Shown here: in pieces, positions 26,308 through 49,532 of the stretch
Layout of the letters: each line of letters begins with the position of its first letter
How positions within the stretch are numbered: position 1 is the stretch's first letter
Virus record (IMG/VR): IMGVR_UViG_3300029989_000016
Span: 1-64,000 of that record
Direction: 5' to 3' (one strand)
Length of the DNA: 64,000 nucleotides
From: a virus
Program-made: the position numbers and the translations under genes
Notes under the pieces: model-generated
The model's input: only the letters and a program-made list of their open reading frames with translations
What the model was told of the DNA's origin: nothing
Database searches by the model: none

Positions 26308-26750
26308 TATGTTCGAACCCATGAATATTATCTGTAGGAGTATATGCGGTTGTCTTATTGCAGGCAACAGATTTATTAAAAACTTTATTCGGTAATTTGC
26401 CGCGAGTTAATCGATATATTCAGCCGCGATATTAATGGAGTTAGGTACATATTCTAAAATACCGGAATATTTCTGAGGGAATAAACCGATACAAACTTGG
26501 GTATTGCCGCAAGTCGTTGTTTTATATAGTTATTAATACCTTTTTATCTGTATATTATCTAAATATCTAAATATCTACAGAATAACTAAAGTAGATAGCT
26601 TTCTATTCCTATGCTCTTGCGAAACCCTCTAGAAAAACGATATTCGAAAATAACGCGGCAAGTCCTTGATTATAAAGCGAAAAGAAATATCCGATTTTTT
26701 AGAATCCGCACTTTCGAAAACCCGAATCCGCTATATCCGGGGCGAAAACA
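26308..26750. other. AT-rich non-coding gap with dispersed repeat
   Basis: No convincing gene is present. The gap carries two copies of a repeat centred on GCAAGTCGTTG (26504-26529) and GCAAGTCCTTG (26655-26677), and a 67-base block that recurs at 46835-46901. Stretches of TATCTAAATATCTA make it easily melted. It lies upstream of the protease/capsid operon, so it may hold a control region or an origin. Confidence 0.6.
26504..26570 (+). repeat. 67-base block shared with 46835-46901, copy 1
   Basis: It begins ATTGCCGCAAGTCGTTGTTTT-like (positions 26503-26523) and ends with TTATCTGTATATTATCTAAATATCTAA-like sequence (about 26544-26570). The same order of elements, with small changes, appears 20 kb away in another non-coding gap. 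Confidence 0.75.
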
Positions 26751-26778
26751 GGCGCGGCAAACATCAATTCGCCGCGCC
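26751..26778 (-). terminator. Terminator after the small membrane gene
   Basis: GGCGCGGC pairs perfectly with GCCGCGCC around a 12-base loop. On the minus strand TGTTTTCG follows. It lies 4 bases beyond the stop of the 51-residue gene. Confidence 0.65.
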
Positions 26779-26782
26779 CGCA

Positions 26783-26938
26783 TCAGATATAAAACATTAA
26801 AAGTATGATCGCAAGATCGAAGAATGCCAGGCGGCGCTTAAAAAACGCGCAGGTAAGGAAAAAATCGTACATATCGATGGCAATTTCTTTTATGCGCTTC
26901 GATACTGATTTCGTTTCGTCTTCAGACGTATATTCCAT
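26783..26938 (-). CDS. Small C-terminally anchored membrane protein (51 residues)
   Basis: On the minus strand, ATG 26938 follows AGGA at seven bases, ten bases after the previous stop. The product starts MEYTSEDETKSVSKRIKEIA and ends in a hydrophobic LAFFDLAIILLMFYI, suggesting a tail-anchored membrane peptide. A terminator follows directly. The gene is short, but ribosome site, coupling and terminator all agree. Function unknown. Confidence 0.55.
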   Translation of the reverse strand: MEYTSEDETKSVSKRIKEIAIDMYDFFLTCAFFKRRLAFFDLAIILLMFYI

Positions 26939-26947
26939 GAGCATTCC

Positions 26948-27148
26948 TCATTTATTGGCAATACCAATTATTCTGTTGATTTTGGTTATCAGCGATTTAA
27001 TCATAGGCTTCATGCTATCGCTGGCTTTATTCTTTCGCTGCTGAGAATACGCTATCGCAACGGCCTGTTTTGGGTCTTTGCCTGCGGCTATTTCTCGCTT
27101 GACATTCTCTTCGCGGGCTGCGCTTCCAGTCCCTTTTGATAATGGCAT
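26948..27148 (-). CDS. Small conserved phage protein
   Basis: The 66-residue basic protein begins MPLSKGTGSAAREENVKREIAAGK and contains KQAVAIAYSQQR, the signature of a widespread family of short phage proteins encoded near head genes. Function unknown; it may bind DNA through its basic helices. Confidence 0.65.
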   Translation of the reverse strand: MPLSKGTGSAAREENVKREIAAGKDPKQAVAIAYSQQRKNKASDSMKPMIKSLITKINRIIGIANK

Positions 27149-36927: not shown

Positions 36928-37679
36928 TGGCTAAGAAACCGAACGTCATCGCGGGCATCGTATCACTAAAGCCGTCTGCATCGCCGGAGATTATTTCTGA
37001 TCTGGTTAAGCTGCACGATGATAAAAAGATAGTCTCTGGCGGGTGTCGTGGCGGTAAGTCGATGGCCGCTAAGGGATATGAGCGCACCGTAAGCGAACAT
37101 CTTGCACGGTCGTTCCAGCTTTCCACGCCAGGATTGCCTGCGCGTTACGGAATGCTTAACGACCGTGGCCCGGTAGTTTGCGGCATTGGGCCGACGTTCA
37201 CGAATATGGCAAATGCAGTCTGGGCGCAAAAGAGCCGCGAGGATATTCTCGCGGATATCAATCTAGGAAAGGAGTTTTTGATGAAAGAATCAAATTGGCT
37301 TAACGATAATGCCGCTACGGCGCAGCGCCTTAATTCGGAAGCTCTGGAGTCGCAGGCGGCTGAGCACGCCGAATACCTTAAGAGCCTGGGCCGTGCGCCT
37401 TCATACGGACACGTTGTAGTGCAAATCGGCACGCCGCCCGCAAGCTGCTCTGTTGCCGAGCGCTACGGAGTCGCCTATATTAATGACCAGCTTCGGGCCT
37501 TGCGTCTGGACCACTGGAAGAAGCACGGCGAGTGGCGAGATATCCAGTATATGTTCGGTATGGATGCTGCGGTGATCGAAAACGCGCGAAATATGGCCGA
37601 ATGGCATCTTAAGGCCGTCCAGACGCTCAACAGCATCGTAACCGGAACCGCCGAACAGGACGATGCGGCAGTCGCCTGA
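36927..37679 (+). CDS. Hypothetical protein
   Basis: The 250-residue protein is partly helical. GGCRGGKS near residues 38-45 resembles a P-loop, but no Walker B or other NTPase motif follows, so I do not call it an ATPase. It is the last long gene of the cluster. No family recognised. Confidence 0.55.
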   Translation: MAKKPNVIAGIVSLKPSASPEIISDLVKLHDDKKIVSGGCRGGKSMAAKGYERTVSEHLARSFQLSTPGLPARYGMLNDRGPVVCGIGPTFTNMANAVWAQKSREDILADINLGKEFLMKESNWLNDNAATAQRLNSEALESQAAEHAEYLKSLGRAPSYGHVVVQIGTPPASCSVAERYGVAYINDQLRALRLDHWKKHGEWRDIQYMFGMDAAVIENARNMAEWHLKAVQTLNSIVTGTAEQDDAAVA

Positions 37680-37761
37680 ATCGCAGGGAAAACGTAGTAC
37701 GTTAATCCCTATCTTGGAGACTTCCTGGGCAATATAATTATGCTTCTTAACGGGAGGCATA

Positions 37762-37950
37762 ATGGCAAATACGCCCATAGAAATTTTGGTGGACGCGCAG
37801 AAGGCGATAGGAGGCGCACTATCGATTGACCGGCAATTATTCGTTAGCGAGCATTATTTGAGTCTGGTGGAATTCCTTTCCAGCGACAGGGGCCGGGCGT
37901 CGGTGGTTCTTTTCGTTGACGCATGGCGAGCGCATAAAACCGATACATAA
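37762..37950 (+). CDS. Small hypothetical protein
   Basis: The product has 62 residues behind a strong GGGAGG site. It is amphipathic, with no motif. A perfect terminator follows two bases after the stop, which supports a real short gene. Confidence 0.6.
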   Translation: MANTPIEILVDAQKAIGGALSIDRQLFVSEHYLSLVEFLSSDRGRASVVLFVDAWRAHKTDT

Positions 37951-37951
37951 C

Positions 37952-37981
37952 AAAAGGCCCACTAGCGATAGTGGGCCTTTT
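37952..37981. terminator. Strong bidirectional terminator
   Basis: A 13-base perfect stem (AAAAGGCCCACTA with its complement) around GCGA, with A and T runs on both sides. It ends the plus-strand cluster and the minus-strand gene at 38091. Confidence 0.9.
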
Positions 37982-38090
37982 CTATTGCGCTATGCTAGAT
38001 GCCTGCAATGATGACGCATCTTGGCAATATCGCTGATGAGTTCGTTGACTGCGGCAAAAACTTGTCTTTCGAACTCATCAATTTCGTGCG

Positions 38091-39140
38091 CTAGGTACGC
38101 ACGTTCACAGGGTTCGCAGTCTGCGCGCCGGTCGTCGTCGCGCCGGTATTTCCGATGATCATGTTGCTGTTCGTCGCCACGGCGTTTTGCAAACCCGCTA
38201 CCACTGCCGCAAGCTGGTTAAAGCCGACAACCAGTTGTTGCTGTTGTTGCTGCGCCTGGGCTTGGGCTTGGTTCTGGTTGACGTTCTGGGTGACCGTGAC
38301 TTCAACTTCACGCTGGCGACCCAACAGGCGATCTTCCAGTCCACGAGATTCGGCAATTGTCAATTGACGTTGCAGGTTCGCATCGTTGATCGACTGGATC
38401 AGGGCGCGGGTTTTGTCGCCATCGTTGTTGACGACTTGACTGAGAGCGTAGGTGTTTTGCACCATTGCCGTACCCAGATTTGCCACGGCCAGATTGGTCG
38501 CTGCCGAAGTGGCGTTAACGGTATCCTTCACCGTTTCCCCTACTGCGATGATGCCAGCCGTTGCCGTCGAAATTGCAGAATTCGTGTTGGCGAATCCCTG
38601 GATGTTCGAAATGGCATAGGCGCTCGCCTGACCAGAAAGGGCAGCTTGCGCACCGGCAAGCGCCAGCTGTACTTGGCCTTCGTTGTATGGAATGGCGGCT
38701 TCGATGCGGCCCAATTGCGACATAACTGCCGTGTTGTTCGCCGATTCCGTTACGCCTGCAAGGGCTGCTGTCAGTTGCGTCGGCGTTACGCAGCCCTCGA
38801 CAGGGCCGACGCCGCGACCGTCGTTACCAAGCAGTCCGCGACCACCCAGGAGCGCCCCGCCCAGCACGCCGCCGAGCAGACCAGCACCCAGGCCCGCGCC
38901 AGCGCCTGCACCCGCACCGCTTACGCCGTTACCGCCCATCATCATCGGCAGCATTGCGCCCATGGGATTCGTTTCGAAAATGTTTTTTACGTTTACTGGT
39001 TCCGTCATTTCTTGTGCCTCTTTCGTTTGATTTTCATGCGTTTGCGCGGCTACCTGCGTGCCTGGAACTTCCCGGCTTTCGTAATGCGATTTGTGCGCAA
39101 TTTGCGAATGAACGGGCATTTCTTGCTCATGTATTTCCAT
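38091..39140 (-). CDS. Low-complexity Gly/Ala/Gln-rich protein
   Basis: The 349-residue protein is alone on the minus strand within the plus-strand cluster. After a charged start comes a glycine/leucine-rich block (about 70-107: GAGAGAGLGAGLLGG), an alanine-rich helical middle (120-260), and a Q/N stretch (NVNQNQAQAQAQQQQQQ, about 285-301). It could be an unusual virion or internal-head protein, or a membrane-active one. A second open frame runs past its stop (see findings). Confidence 0.6.
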   Translation of the reverse strand: MEIHEQEMPVHSQIAHKSHYESREVPGTQVAAQTHENQTKEAQEMTEPVNVKNIFETNPMGAMLPMMMGGNGVSGAGAGAGAGLGAGLLGGVLGGALLGGRGLLGNDGRGVGPVEGCVTPTQLTAALAGVTESANNTAVMSQLGRIEAAIPYNEGQVQLALAGAQAALSGQASAYAISNIQGFANTNSAISTATAGIIAVGETVKDTVNATSAATNLAVANLGTAMVQNTYALSQVVNNDGDKTRALIQSINDANLQRQLTIAESRGLEDRLLGRQREVEVTVTQNVNQNQAQAQAQQQQQQLVVGFNQLAAVVAGLQNAVATNSNMIIGNTGATTTGAQTANPVNVRT

Positions 39141-43709: not shown

Positions 43710-43724
43710 ACATTACTGAAATAA

Positions 43725-43764
43725 CAAAAGCCCTGTAAATCTATCCAGACTTGCAGGGCTTTTG
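43725..43764. terminator. Bidirectional terminator
   Basis: CAAAAGCCCTG pairs with CAGGGCTTTTG across an 18-base loop, between convergent genes. Confidence 0.75.
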
Positions 43765-43786
43765 TTCGTCTAGCTATCGAGGCTGG

Positions 43787-44397: not shown

Positions 44398-44476
<79 letters not shown>

Positions 44477-44484
44477 ATCATGGA

Positions 44485-44735
44485 TTGACGACAAGAAGTG
44501 AAGAGATTTATATGCGATGTAATCCGCTTCGGCATTCGTCAAAAGGTGCCGGTTACGTTATCCGGCGTCACTTTCGTGACCGTGCAGGGCTTCACCCGCT
44601 AAGTGCCGCGCCCTATGTTCGTCGCTGACGATGATGGTGCGCTACAAATGCTCTGGCCCTCGTGGCGCGGAGTTAAACCGGCGTTGATCGACATTATCCG
44701 CCCTTGCGCAAGGAGAGGACTAACACGAGGATGAT
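44485..44735 (-). ncRNA. Structured non-coding segment between tRNA genes
   Basis: No gene is seen. Perfect stems are TTGACGA/TCGTCAA (44485-44491 with 44536-44542), GCCGG/CCGGC (44548-44552 with 44562-44566) and GTCAC/GTGAC (44567-44580), the last closing a GAAA tetraloop on the minus strand. It may belong with the structured RNA candidate at 44990-45985. Confidence 0.4.
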
Positions 44736-44736
44736 C

Positions 44737-44813
44737 TGGTGGGCAATAAGGGATTCGAACCCCCTGTCACGCGGCATAGAAGACCGCTGTTCTATCCACT
44801 GAACTAATCGCCC
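44737..44813 (-). tRNA. tRNA-Arg (TCT)
   Basis: A 77-base cloverleaf: acceptor GGGCGAT/ATTGCCC, D-stem GTTC/GAAC, anticodon loop CTTCTAT with TCT, T-loop TTCGAAT, encoded CCA. It reads AGA, a codon rare in hosts of moderate to high GC. Confidence 0.9.
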
Positions 44814-44912: not shown

Positions 44913-44987
44913 TGGAGCGGGCTGTGAGGTTCGAACTCACGCATGGCGACTTGGAAAGACTCAGCCTTACCACTTGGCGAAGCCCGC
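44913..44987 (-). tRNA. tRNA-Gly (TCC) with irregular anticodon stem
   Basis: A 75-base cloverleaf: acceptor GCGGGCT/AGCCCGC, D-stem GCC/GGC, loop TTTCCAA with TCC, T-arm GTGAG-TTCGAAC-CTCAC, discriminator T and CCA. The anticodon stem GAGTC/GTCGC has only three pairs (A-G and T-T mismatches), so it may be decaying or specialised. Confidence 0.75.
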
Positions 44988-44989
44988 AA

Positions 44990-45985
44990 TAATCTGGGCA
45001 GGGGTAACGGCACAATAAAACCGCTCATAATTCACTCTAGGCCCATCCCGCGACAACCTAAAGCCTGCACGAAGAAACTGGGAGGGAATAACTAGCTCTT
45101 TGCCAAAGGCGCTCTAGCTTTGTTCTACAATCCACTTCCCCCGATTATGGACTGATTCGCCGTTTTTACCGCCTCTTTAGCCCGCTAAGGCCCGCCATAA
45201 CACGGTGCGGTTTCGTGACTAGGGCTATCCGAATATGCCTTTCGTCAGTTTGCTCCAGCGCTAGCCGAACAAACTTATTTGAAAATGGTTGAGTGGTTAG
45301 TTACTCCACATCGCAGCGACCACGCACTGTATCCTACTATTTTAGACGATCAACCATTAGGCAGTTTCTATTTCATTCTAGCTACTCCCGACCGCGCCAT
45401 GCCGAAGCCGAAAGAAGGATCACAAAATAGAAACTGCCTAATGGCACCGGGGCGTGAATCGAAACACGCTATCCTCTGTAGGCTTACCATCGAACGACTC
45501 AGTGGCCGCCCTCAATAAACAACGTACAGCGCACAGGCCGTTGTGCTTTCCCGGTACTGGGTGCCGCTGCTGGGAGTGCGCTTTCGCGTCTCACTGATGC
45601 CCGAAGGCAAAGATGCAGCGCCATTTGCTACTCGGACGTTTTACCTTTGTCAGCACGCCATTTACATCATGCTTTTCAAGTCGTCCGTTTCGATGCTGCG
45701 GGTGTTATCCCTAGTCCCTTTCCACGCTAGTCCGAAATGTTCGCAAATTGGTGAGAGAGAAAGCCCAATCAGTTGCTACTAAGTCCAGCGGCGTCGTCCG
45801 TTTGCTGCACCGACGAGACGAACTATATCGCGCACCCACTACCGAAGCAATACCCTAGACACCTTATTAGTGAACGACTTGCAGTGTATCGTAATGCGAT
45901 TTTAAGGCCCGTAGCGCTGTTTGCGTAAAAACCCAGGGCTTACTACCTCCGTGGGGTCGTTCGCAGCGCGTAGGGGCCGGAAAAT
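44990..45985 (-). ncRNA. Candidate giant structured RNA beside tRNA genes
   Basis: About 1 kb lacks any convincing gene yet is full of stems that fit a minus-strand transcript. Near the 5' side GGCCC...GCGCTG pairs with CAGCGC...GGGCC (about 45906-45920 with 45964-45978). CGGACG/CGTCCG (45633-45638, 45682-45687) encloses AGCATG/CGTGCT with a G-T pair. A TGCC-TTCG-GGCA hairpin lies at 45598-45609, a CGC-GAAA-GCG hairpin at 45579-45588 and GCACA/TGTGC at 45531-45546. Length, phage setting and the adjoining tRNA genes recall GOLLD and ROOL RNAs. Class membership is not shown. Confidence 0.5.
45354..45444. repeat. 20-base perfect inverted repeat
   Basis: CCATTAGGCAGTTTCTATTT (45354-45373) and its exact complement (45425-45444) flank 51 bases. 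The left arm also overlaps the end of another possible 9-base stem (AATGGTTGA, 45284-45292, with TCAACCATT, 45350-45358), so two foldings exclude each other. Confidence 0.9.
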
Positions 45986-45991
45986 CGATTC

Positions 45992-46480
45992 TTAGTGCTT
46001 TGCGGACGTATCCGGTGTGCCGGGAACTGCCGCCCCGTGCGATCCGTAGAAGTCGGCCAGCGAAGTTCCTTTGCGCGACTTGCCAGTTTCGTCAACCACG
46101 ATAATGCCGCACATAACGTTAAGCTCTTTCAGCGCGTTCAAACGTACAGATTCTTTGTAGACAGGATTGCGAGTCAGGCACAATAATTCGTGCAGCGACT
46201 GCTTTGTATTCCACAAATCCTCGATTGCAATCTCTTTCAAGCGCTGCTTAAAACCGTTCTGGTAATAAGGCGTCGATTCGATTGCATCAATACGCTTCAA
46301 AATGTTCTGGTCTGCGTTGACCTCGCCGAATACGCGACGCAAGGCGATGGACGCGTGGTAGCCGCGTACTCTGTGATCGATATAAAGATCGTAGTCCGCT
46401 TTGTGTTGCTCGATGAATTTATCATCTTCGAACTTCTCATACATAATCGGGAAATTCGACTTGCGTAATGGCTCTGTCAT
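45992..46480 (-). CDS. Terminase small subunit, putative
   Basis: The 162-residue protein has an N-terminal helical region with a helix-turn-helix-like part (HRVRGYHASIALRRVFG), a central helical oligomerisation segment (NTKQSLHELLCLTRNPVYKESVRLNALKEL), and an end with DETGKSRKGTSLADFYG. These are typical of phage small terminases that recognise DNA for packaging. It is 12 kb from the large subunit, an unusual distance, and the structured RNA candidate lies directly downstream on the same strand. Confidence 0.55.
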   Translation of the reverse strand: MTEPLRKSNFPIMYEKFEDDKFIEQHKADYDLYIDHRVRGYHASIALRRVFGEVNADQNILKRIDAIESTPYYQNGFKQRLKEIAIEDLWNTKQSLHELLCLTRNPVYKESVRLNALKELNVMCGIIVVDETGKSRKGTSLADFYGSHGAAVPGTPDTSAKH

Positions 46481-46531
46481 AATATGCTCCTGTTGCTTTA
46501 TTCCGTTTGGCCTCTGTGGCGCTGTGTTGCG

Positions 46532-46562
46532 ATTATATCTAATGCATGCTACTCAGGGTAAA
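46532..46562 (-). promoter_or_regulatory. Probable promoter for the small terminase gene
   Basis: On the minus strand TTTACC (46557-46562), a 19-base spacer and perfect TATAAT (46532-46537) lie 52 bases before the gene. It may also drive the downstream RNA and tRNA genes. Confidence 0.5.
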
Positions 46563-46834
46563 TATTATGTTAATTTCGTGCTGCTTTATGTCCTCTTGAC
46601 GCCGCGCCGCGATAACCTAGAATAGTGCTGCTTTATTGCTGGTTCTGATGATTTGATTATGTCCGAAATTGCGGATATTTTACTGTGGCTGCTGCCGCGC
46701 ATATTGCTTGTTTCCGCTCGTAAGTCGTTGATTCTAAAGCGAAAAGTTTTTTGTGGTTGCCGCGAGTAATTGCGAAATGATGCCGAATATATCGGATTCT
46801 TCTGGCTTTACGAAAACAGATATATTTTCCGGTA

Positions 46835-46901
46835 TTGCCGCAAGTCGTTGTTTTTGCAGTCTTAATTTACTTCTTTTATCTGTATTTATCTAAATATCTA
46901 A
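46835..46901 (+). repeat. 67-base block shared with 26504-26570, copy 2
   Basis: Same order as copy 1: TTGCCGCAAGTCGTTGTTTT, then TTTATCTGTA and TATCTAAATATCTA. The two gaps are 20 kb apart and otherwise different. Confidence 0.75.
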
Positions 46902-47009
46902 TTTAATAGAATATAGATATAAGTATATAGGTATTGTCCTATGCCCTCTCAGACCTTTATGCTAAATTAGTTATTTGCGATTTCAGCGGCTAAATACACT
47001 AAATTTCTC

Positions 47010-47220
47010 TTTAAATACAACTACTTAACAGTTAATGCGAATTATTTCTGACCTTAAAATAAACGGATATTTCCGCTACGAAAAACGATATTTACCGAAT
47101 TTTCACCAGTTTTCGCGGCCCTAAATATTTTCCTCTTTAAATACAACAACTTACGCGGCACGCGAAAAACAGATAAAACGGATATTATCCAGCTTTCGCT
47201 TTAAATACAAGGACTTGCGC
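47010..47220 (+). repeat. Three direct repeats, TTTAAATACAA-N2-ACTT
   Basis: Copies begin at 47010, 47136 and 47200: TTTAAATACAACTACTT, TTTAAATACAACAACTT and TTTAAATACAAGGACTT. Spacings are 126 and 64 bases, near multiples of 63 (about six helical turns). They are the reverse form of the GCAAGTCGTTG repeat. Confidence 0.75.
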
Positions 47221-47450
47221 CACAACCCTAGGCGACATAAACTCGACATAATTCCTGCAAACACGACACTAAAACAACCCACTTCCATTCATAATCCGCC
47301 ACTCACGACTCTACCTCATTTCGCCAGCGGCCTGACTCATAAACAGAACACTTTAAACGCAAGAAAGGACGGCTCAGAAACTTAGTAAAAAGTCACCGAA
47401 CCGCCCGCAAAACTTATCAAATCTCTAACGTTTTAATGTTCTATTCGGCA

Positions 47451-49532
47451 TCAAAATCCAGCCCCTTCGCTCGCTCCGTTACGCGCATTCCCCTTGCCAC
47501 CGGTACGCGTAACCCGCGTAATGTCCTCGTCTTCGGTCGAATCTGCGGCAATTACGCGGCCCATATATTCAACGTCGTCCATCACGCCCTCAAACATATA
47601 GCCCTTATATCCGTCCATCTGCTCCGGTTTCGCCCCCATAGCCAGCATGCGAACCTTAAGCCGGTTATCCATCACCCGATGCCCGCGAGACAGATCAGTA
47701 ATGCGTGAGCTAATATCGCCCGTCTTAACGAAAGCGCCTTTCTTCACGCGACGGTTATAGAACATAACCTCGATACTCATAAGCGCCTCGGTGAGATAAT
47801 TCTCCAGGGCCTGATCTCGCGGCGTACCACGGTTGTTGTTCATTTCGGTAAGGTTGAAAGCCGCAACCTCTTTCACCACCTCTCCGACGAACTTATTGTA
47901 TCCAGACATTCCGTCGTTAGCGTGCAACCACTCACGGCACTCTGCCATAATCTGCCACAGGTCGTCAACGAACCCCGTAAAGTCTGCGCTGTATGTTTCC
48001 GCCGCCGACTCCTTACCGTTCGCGTCAATATGCTGGCCCACCAGCATGGGATAGAAACGACGATTACCAGTTTCGTCCCTTTGCAAGCCTTCGTAACGAT
48101 TGCCGTCCATCACGGTTATCCACTGCCGCTGCTGGTCGTAATGGCCCTCAAATTTCTGGTGCATCTTGTCGCTGGTCAGCGTCATGAAGGACTTGACCTT
48201 ATTCATATCGGCTGTATTAAAACCAGTCATTTCGCCGATATTAGCGATGATCGATGTGCCGGTAATATCGCGCAAGAACTTAATCGGATCGACGCCCAGG
48301 TCCAGCTGCACGGCATCCGCATTTTGATCGCTCATAAGGGTGCGGCATATCAGCTTCGACATATACGACTTACCTGCGTCCTGCGGCCCGAACAGAGACA
48401 GTGCAATGGGTGCCATGCAGCCTGGATGCATAATACGAGCATAAAGCGACAACCAGAAATACTGCCCGAACTTCTTGTTTAAGTCCGTCTTGAACGTGCT
48501 GAAAAGGTTAATCAACTTGTGCTGGGCGCGTCGCTTTCCGTCCCATTCCGGTAACTGCCGTTCGAAGCTGATGATAAGGTCGTTTTGCTTGCGACCCAAA
48601 GACCACTCACGAAGTGATGCCTTAAGGTCGCGTACCGATTGCGACTTAAGCCCGGCAGCGCCCGACGCCGTAAGAATTTCGATCATATTGTAATGGTCGT
48701 CAATAATTACCTTGTTGTGATCCACCATGCGCCCGCTGAATAAATCGATGTGCGGTCGGTCTTCTCCGTCGCCGAAAATCATATCGAAAAATGCCATACG
48801 ATTGGAGTCGCATGATACTGGCTGGGATATCGTCATATCGCCGACTCGAATAAATTTTTCTTCGGCCCACTTAAACGGCATGGCATTAGAAAGTGCCTTT
48901 GCTCGCTTTACCAGATTAGGCTCTAAGCGTATTTCGTCCGCAAGTTCCTCGTCAGCACTGCGGCGAACCGACAGGCTAGATACGGCGCGCACCGATAACG
49001 TTTGCGCGGCCTGCATATCTTCCGACACTTCCGCTTCGCCCCACTTTGGCATCGAATACTCTACGTCCACGTCGTCCTTCGGCAGCATAGGGGCGACTGT
49101 CATGCGACGCTCGCGCCATTCCGAAACCGAAGCCGAGACTTCCGCCTCACGCTGCTCGCGTGCCACTTCCTTTTCTTGCTCTGCCTTTGCCACTTCCGCG
49201 TCTGCCGCATCTTTCAATTGCTGCGCGAGTGCGTCAGCATCTGCCGTCTTCGCCTTGACTCGTGCTAATTGCCGCGCTGCCACGTCCTGCGCTACCGCCG
49301 CGACGTTTTCGGGCGTCGGCTCTACGAAGGGAACCCCTCTTTGCTCTGCGACGAGCCTGGAGCGTTCTAGCGCCTTTGCCGCCTTCGCCTCTTTCTTAAG
49401 GCGGGCTATTTCTTTTGCCTCTTCCTTCACTGCCGCGCTTGATGCTTTAATCTGGGCAGGCGTTAATACGTCTTCCGCCTTCGTTGCTTCGTCGTCCCAT
49501 GGGAGTCCGCCGCCTGTTTTACTATCGGTCAT
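47451..49532 (-). CDS. VapE-type primase/helicase ATPase
   Basis: The 693-residue protein has an A/E/K-rich coiled-coil front (about 25-145) and a VapE-like superfamily 3 helicase domain: Walker A GPQDAGKS (382-389), Walker B-like SIIANIGEM (about 425-433), and KSFMTLTSDKMHQKFEGHY with RFYPMLVGQ after it. Such proteins unwind DNA at phage origins, usually with a primase, which is the next gene upstream. The C-terminal 120 residues may bind DNA or the partner. Confidence 0.8.
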   Translation of the reverse strand: MTDSKTGGGLPWDDEATKAEDVLTPAQIKASSAAVKEEAKEIARLKKEAKAAKALERSRLVAEQRGVPFVEPTPENVAAVAQDVAARQLARVKAKTADADALAQQLKDAADAEVAKAEQEKEVAREQREAEVSASVSEWRERRMTVAPMLPKDDVDVEYSMPKWGEAEVSEDMQAAQTLSVRAVSSLSVRRSADEELADEIRLEPNLVKRAKALSNAMPFKWAEEKFIRVGDMTISQPVSCDSNRMAFFDMIFGDGEDRPHIDLFSGRMVDHNKVIIDDHYNMIEILTASGAAGLKSQSVRDLKASLREWSLGRKQNDLIISFERQLPEWDGKRRAQHKLINLFSTFKTDLNKKFGQYFWLSLYARIMHPGCMAPIALSLFGPQDAGKSYMSKLICRTLMSDQNADAVQLDLGVDPIKFLRDITGTSIIANIGEMTGFNTADMNKVKSFMTLTSDKMHQKFEGHYDQQRQWITVMDGNRYEGLQRDETGNRRFYPMLVGQHIDANGKESAAETYSADFTGFVDDLWQIMAECREWLHANDGMSGYNKFVGEVVKEVAAFNLTEMNNNRGTPRDQALENYLTEALMSIEVMFYNRRVKKGAFVKTGDISSRITDLSRGHRVMDNRLKVRMLAMGAKPEQMDGYKGYMFEGVMDDVEYMGRVIAADSTEDEDITRVTRTGGKGNARNGASEGAGF

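What the first reader, a model, noticed from the sequence alone, without database searches (positions are those of the whole stretch)
44990..45985. Candidate giant structured RNA next to phage tRNA genes
Seen: about 1 kb without a plausible gene, between the small-terminase-like gene and three tRNA genes, all on the minus strand. Many perfect stems are present. Strand-specific signs point to a minus-strand RNA: TGCC-TTCG-GGCA (45598-45609), CGC-GAAA-GCG (45579-45588) and AGCATG/CGTGCT with a G-T pair that would be an A-C mismatch on the other strand (45652-45673). Known: GOLLD and ROOL RNAs are large, ornate, often phage-encoded and often beside tRNA genes. Inference: this may be one of them or a new class.
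Basis: partly seen in the sequence, partly recalled or inferred. Interest (0 to 1): 0.85.

Follow-up and report, generated by a model that had tools for sequence, protein, structure and literature searches.

The report
Orphan candidate phage RNA beside tRNAs
A virus of soil-type bacteria carries about 1,000 letters of gene-free DNA next to three tRNA genes, which may make a large RNA molecule of its own, but it matches no known RNA family and, without any relatives to compare, its structure cannot yet be proven.

Summary
In detail: 44988-45991 (1,004 nt) has no ORF above 79 aa, no codon signal and no protein-family match. It lies between a TerS gene and three tRNA genes on the same strand.
It is not GOLLD or ROOL by any test that could be run: Rfam at E<=10, whole-record GOLLD and ROOL searches, and two covariance models built here from a ROOL-like core. 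No sequence relative was found in INPHARED, PLSDB, 48 related IMG/VR phages or 398 Burkholderiaceae genomes. Twenty-four of 25 related phages have no such gap after TerS and the other's is unrelated, so the RNA-tRNA block is lineage-specific and covariation cannot be tested. Folding energy is no higher than in this phage's coding DNA, but a true ROOL also fails that test.
Best reading (0.5): an orphan large minus-strand noncoding RNA, co-transcribed with the tRNAs and cut free by RNase P. Main rival: functionless DNA acquired with the tRNAs.
By-product: Staphylococcus phage K's 1.15-kb RNA is a divergent ROOL below Rfam's cut-off.

The parts
44988..45991 (-). ORF-free 1,004-nt stretch, candidate large noncoding RNA (5' limit just after the TerS stop, 3' limit at the tRNA-Gly 5' end; both limits inferred)
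   Evidence: no ORF above 79 aa; no codon signal in six frames; no significant Pfam/PHROGs match in read-through frames; GC 0.515, like the genes, unlike the AT-rich gap upstream (0.39)
45346..45450 (-). long hairpin, 24 pairs on the minus strand with a perfect 20-bp core (45354-45373/45425-45444) plus a 9-bp apical stem
   Evidence: local z -7.8 minus, -5.1 plus
45317..45540 (-). predicted multi-branch domain closed by CGGCC/GGTCG and TGCGCTGTA/TACAGTGCG, holding the long hairpin
   Evidence: predicted pairing probability 0.85-0.99 for the closing and long helices; z -5.1 minus, -3.3 plus; no covariation test possible
45896..45988 (-). predicted 5' hairpin immediately after the TerS stop codon
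   Evidence: (I2); z -3.4 minus, -4.7 plus
   Evidence: z -2.1 minus, -1.7 plus
44913..44987 (-). tRNA-Gly (TCC); its RNase P cut would set the 3' end of the RNA
44737..44813 (-). tRNA-Arg (TCT)
44398..44476 (-). tRNA-Met (CAT), 60 bases identical to tRNA-Met genes of Cupriavidus and Oxalobacteraceae genomes
45992..46480 (-). TerS-like protein, PB1 gp79 family (phrog_4783), upstream neighbour
   Evidence: a weak relative sits directly upstream of a large terminase gene in L001
43715..43765 (-). strong hairpin with A- and T-runs on its sides, likely bidirectional terminator ending the minus-strand unit
   Evidence: sequence; z -8.1 in its 150-nt window; fold

Best explanation
An orphan, lineage-specific large noncoding RNA of about 1.0 kb. 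It would be transcribed from the minus strand together with TerS upstream and tRNA-Gly/Arg/Met downstream, and cut free at its 3' end by RNase P at the tRNA-Gly 5' end. It would act as a stable structural RNA during infection, in the manner of GOLLD, ROOL and phage K's long RNA. Shown: no coding signal, position, strand, tRNA adjacency, one exceptional hairpin, absence from relatives. Inferred: transcription, processing, structure, function.
For: 1 kb without coding signal in any frame but with gene-like GC 0.515, against 0.39 for the intergenic gap next door, in an otherwise densely coded phage. It abuts three same-strand tRNA genes, with the likely terminator only beyond them. The same gene / 1.15-kb RNA / three-tRNA layout occurs in phage K, where the RNA is transcribed and its family's structure is supported by compensatory changes in 61 of 108 pairs. 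A 24-pair hairpin whose outer pairs are G-U on the minus strand only. CTTCGG and AGTAGC each occur three times on the minus strand and never on the plus strand (noticed after the fact).
Against: No homologue was found anywhere searched, so nothing shows conservation or covariation. Folding energy is within the range of this phage's coding DNA. The 3' third has no excess structure (z 0.8). 25 relatives with TerS located lack it, so it is dispensable to the group. No convincing promoter was found.
Confidence: 0.5

Rival explanations
1. Functionless or decaying DNA: the three tRNAs were acquired recently with flanking sequence, and the 1-kb stretch is eroded foreign DNA or a dead gene awaiting deletion.
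For: The block is absent from relatives. The spacers between the tRNAs (260 and 99 nt) are also non-coding, and one holds a frame broken by a stop. Only the long hairpin makes the whole region exceed shuffled folding.
Against: GC matches the genes, yet no residual codon signal remains and no family matches significantly in read-through frames. Host sequence matches only the tRNA, not its flanks. Phages usually lose 1 kb of dead DNA quickly (general knowledge).
Confidence: 0.3
2. A DNA-level element: terminase recognition site, replication origin or recombination site, with the 20-bp inverted repeat as the protein or cruciform site.
For: It abuts TerS, and the inverted repeat is strong on both strands.
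Against: The likely origin is the other gap, 46481-47450: AT-rich, repeats, skew change, syntenic with PB1 and Carpasina. Relatives with the same TerS lack this stretch. 1 kb is long for a packaging site.
Confidence: 0.1
3. A highly divergent member of ROOL (or GOLLD) that current models miss.
For: Rfam's ROOL model also misses phage K's RNA, although its relatives CF5 and MSShimriz1 score 62.5 and 60.2 bits. An AGTAGCAAA element sits beside a stem at 45624-45672, as in the ROOL core.
Against: No ROOL or GOLLD match at E<=10. Models built here from the ROOL-like core give at best 6.2 bits (E 0.55, an unrelated hairpin alignment) and 4.8 bits (E 1.1) at the AGTAGC site, without the closing stem.
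Confidence: 0.07
4. A fast-evolving gene or several micro-genes overlooked by ORF length.
For: Two 79-aa ORFs in the same plus-strand frame (45279-45518, 45543-45782).
Against: Codon log-ratio negative in every frame; random sequence gives longer ORFs on average.
Confidence: 0.03

Closest known systems
Staphylococcus phage K long RNA at 37679-38832 (lnc002 in Table 1 of PMC9241854), shown here to be a divergent ROOL
   Same: about 1.1 kb, ORF-free, minus strand, between a gene and a cluster of three tRNA genes
   Different: no sequence similarity and no match to the covariance models; it is conserved in 330 phage records and shows covariation, whereas the window RNA has no relative
ROOL RNA (RF03087)
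   Same: large phage RNA near tRNA islands
   Different: no match; about twice the length of the L. salivarius ROOL (543 nt)
GOLLD RNA (RF02032)
   Same: above 800 nt, tRNA-adjacent, phage-borne (PMC12286853)
   Different: no match at E<=10
Phage ICP1 ~800-nt abundant noncoding RNA (PMC7567579)
   Same: an ORF-free ~1-kb space in a lytic phage
   Different: ICP1 has no tRNAs; a blastn search of public phage records with the window region listed no ICP1 match; the two RNAs were not compared directly

Membership tests
GOLLD (RF02032) | significant match to the covariance model of the conserved 3' region | tested here: not met
   no match at E<=10 in the window region or the whole record
GOLLD (RF02032) | phage-encoded, near tRNA genes, above 800 nt | tested here: met
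   1,004 nt abutting tRNA-Gly in a 67-kb phage record; that it is an RNA is not shown
ROOL (RF03087) | significant match to the Rfam covariance model | tested here: not met
   caveat: the same model misses phage K's RNA
ROOL (RF03087) | core domain (capped hairpin plus AGTAGC element closed by a covarying stem) | tested here: not met
   models R1 and R2, filters off: best 5.3 and 6.2 bits, E 0.8 and 0.55
Large ornate noncoding RNA (general kind) | non-coding, about 1 kb, next to same-strand tRNAs | tested here: met
Large ornate noncoding RNA (general kind) | covariation across homologues | tested here: inconclusive
   no homologue found, so it cannot be measured
Large ornate noncoding RNA (general kind) | discrete abundant transcript | not testable with these tools
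   no RNA-seq available
Group I / group II intron, riboswitch or any other Rfam family | match to an Rfam model | tested here: not met
   only chance matches below the gathering scores

The most novel reading that the evidence does not exclude
A new class of giant ornate phage RNA, unrelated to GOLLD and ROOL, carried with a tRNA cluster by a Lindbergviridae-like phage of Burkholderiales: a further independent case of a phage pairing a large structural RNA with tRNAs.
Probability: 0.3. Interest if true: 0.72.

Novelty: new member of a known kind. Interest (0 to 1): 0.42.

Why it matters
Large ornate phage RNAs (GOLLD, ROOL) form RNA cages with no known function, and why they sit beside tRNAs is open. 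An independent large RNA in the same place would suggest that the tRNA-linked position itself matters, for example because tRNA processing releases the RNA. The work also shows that Rfam's ROOL model and blastn can both miss real family members: phage K's RNA is one. 'No database hit' is therefore weak evidence against such candidates.

Tried and rejected
Coding gene or pseudogene: codon model, Pfam and PHROGs on six read-through frames.

Homologues: blastn in phages and plasmids; relatives via TerS, primase and portal proteins in IMG/VR; DNA search of 48 related records and 398 Burkholderiaceae genomes. Four exact 15-16-mer scans of IMG/VR gave only chance matches with no flanking similarity. 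A 20-mer hairpin arm found nothing in genome contigs. A 40-base Janthinobacterium match was judged chance.

A 1,017-nt gap after TerS in G018 (L249) was unrelated.

Folding z-scores as evidence: rejected in both directions, because coding DNA reaches -3.8 and a ROOL gives only -0.75.

Full report
What is there. The window is part of a 67,348-base IMG/VR virus record. Its proteins place it near Pbunavirus/Lindbergviridae-type myophages, at roughly 25-60% protein identity to PB1, BcepF1, Carpasina and others. On the minus strand the order is: primase (47451-49532), an AT-rich gap (46481-47450), a TerS-like gene (45992-46480), 1,004 ORF-free bases (44988-45991), tRNA-Gly, tRNA-Arg, tRNA-Met, then two small genes and a strong terminator-like hairpin (about 43715-43765).

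The stretch is non-coding. The longest ORF is 79 aa where shuffles average 88. All six frames score negative in a codon model under which 30 phage genes score +0.04 to +0.43. Read-through frames hit nothing in PHROGs and only one chance-level Pfam match (E 0.32). Its GC (0.515) is that of the genes; the upstream gap has 0.39.

Structure. Tetraloop hairpins are not in excess of shuffles. One structure is exceptional: a perfect 20-bp inverted repeat that extends to 24 pairs on the minus strand only, through G-U pairs (z -7.8 minus, -5.1 plus). It sits in a predicted 224-nt multi-branch domain (z -5.1 minus, -3.3 plus). A 93-nt hairpin begins just after the TerS stop (z -3.4 minus, but -4.7 plus). 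The last 329 nt show nothing (z 0.8). These sub-regions were chosen after folding, so their z-scores are optimistic.

Why energy cannot decide. The whole region has z -1.43 on the minus strand and 0.12 without the long hairpin. Coding segments of the same phage range from -3.8 to +2.6, and 7 of 16 fold at least as well as this region. The 543-nt L. salivarius ROOL gives -0.75 and two 23S rRNA segments -2.0 and -2.7. The test neither supports nor refutes an RNA.

Family tests. Rfam gives only the tRNAs at gathering thresholds and only chance matches at E<=10. Whole-record GOLLD and ROOL searches are empty.

Relatives. In 25 IMG/VR relatives in which TerS was located (two further fragments are near-duplicates), all but one have at most about 400 nt free of ORFs of 80 aa or more downstream of it. 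The exception (L249, 1,017 nt) is unrelated sequence with repeats and small ORFs. Only four of 48 related records hold a tRNA, none with a comparable gap beside it. The RNA-tRNA block is therefore specific to this lineage, as far as sampled. DNA searches in phages, plasmids, related records and 398 Burkholderiaceae genomes are empty. The tRNA-Met is identical over 60 bases to genes of Cupriavidus and Oxalobacteraceae, which points to a Burkholderiales host; the similarity stops near the gene's edges.

Calibration by an analogue. Phage K has a 1,154-nt ORF-free minus-strand stretch between gp191 and three tRNA genes, reported as a long noncoding RNA. Rfam at E<=1 does not recognise it. It is conserved in 330 phage records, nearly all Staphylococcus phages. 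Seven aligned members support 108 predicted pairs, 61 of them with at least one compensatory change. A covariance model of its core matches the L. salivarius ROOL inside its known position (26.4 bits; E 0.003 in the wider search). Rfam's own ROOL model matches two relatives at 62.5 and 60.2 bits, E about 1e-10, below its cut-off of 99.1. Phage K's RNA is therefore a divergent ROOL. Two lessons follow: an ORF-free kilobase beside phage tRNAs can indeed be an ornate RNA, and blastn and Rfam can both miss one.

The same models on the window. With filters off, R1 and R2 give at best 5.3 and 6.2 bits (E 0.8 and 0.55). The top R2 alignment is an artefact of the long hairpin. A second, at 45624-45672, aligns an AGTAGCAAA element but without the closing stem (4.8 bits, E 1.1). 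This does not support ROOL membership, although the element is worth remembering.

Mechanism proposed. Transcription from upstream of or within TerS runs through the stretch and the tRNAs to the terminator. RNase P cuts at the tRNA-Gly 5' end and leaves an RNA ending at 44988. The RNA then folds and acts as a structural molecule, as GOLLD and ROOL do in vitro (PMC12286853). Only the layout is shown; transcription, processing and function are inferred. I put this at 0.5, functionless acquired DNA at 0.3, a DNA-level element at 0.1, divergent ROOL/GOLLD at 0.07 and a missed gene at 0.03.

Verdict. A sound observation and a reasonable idea; the specific family assignment is not supported, and the structural claim is untestable until a relative is found.

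Noticed in passing
L265:680-1833 (-) = NC_005880.2 37679-38832; L286:876-1384; L287:802-1309: Phage K's long RNA between gp191 and three tRNAs is a divergent ROOL: 108 predicted pairs, 61 with compensatory changes across Twortvirinae, core model matching L. salivarius ROOL, Rfam ROOL at 60-62 bits in two relatives, below the 99.1 cut-off. In PMC9241854 the text and Table 1 disagree on whether this locus is lnc001 or lnc002.
   Followed up: partly
window 46481-47450: AT-rich gap between primase and TerS with three copies of a 24-nt repeat (TTTCTCTTTAAATACAACTACTTA) and a skew change halfway; same position and a skew change in PB1 and Carpasina. Likely replication origin.
   Followed up: partly
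window 43715-43765: Very strong hairpin flanked by A- and T-runs between convergent genes, likely bidirectional terminator.
   Followed up: yes
window 44477-44736: 260-nt spacer between tRNA-Arg and tRNA-Met with a protein-like plus-strand frame interrupted by one stop (RQEVKRFICDVIRFGIRQKVPVTLSGVTFVTVQGFTR*VPRPMFVADDDGALQ...); no PHROGs match.
   Followed up: partly
window 26368-27135: Another AT-rich (GC 0.39) stretch of 768 nt without ORFs of 80 aa or more, between head genes.
   Followed up: no
L249:960-1100: Three copies of AAATAAGCATGCTTTGTA in the 1-kb gap after TerS of a related phage (G018).
   Followed up: no
window 45780, 45632, 45386 (minus strand): AGTAGC, the conserved element of the ROOL-like core, occurs three times on the minus strand of the region and never on the plus strand; noticed after the fact.
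   Followed up: partly
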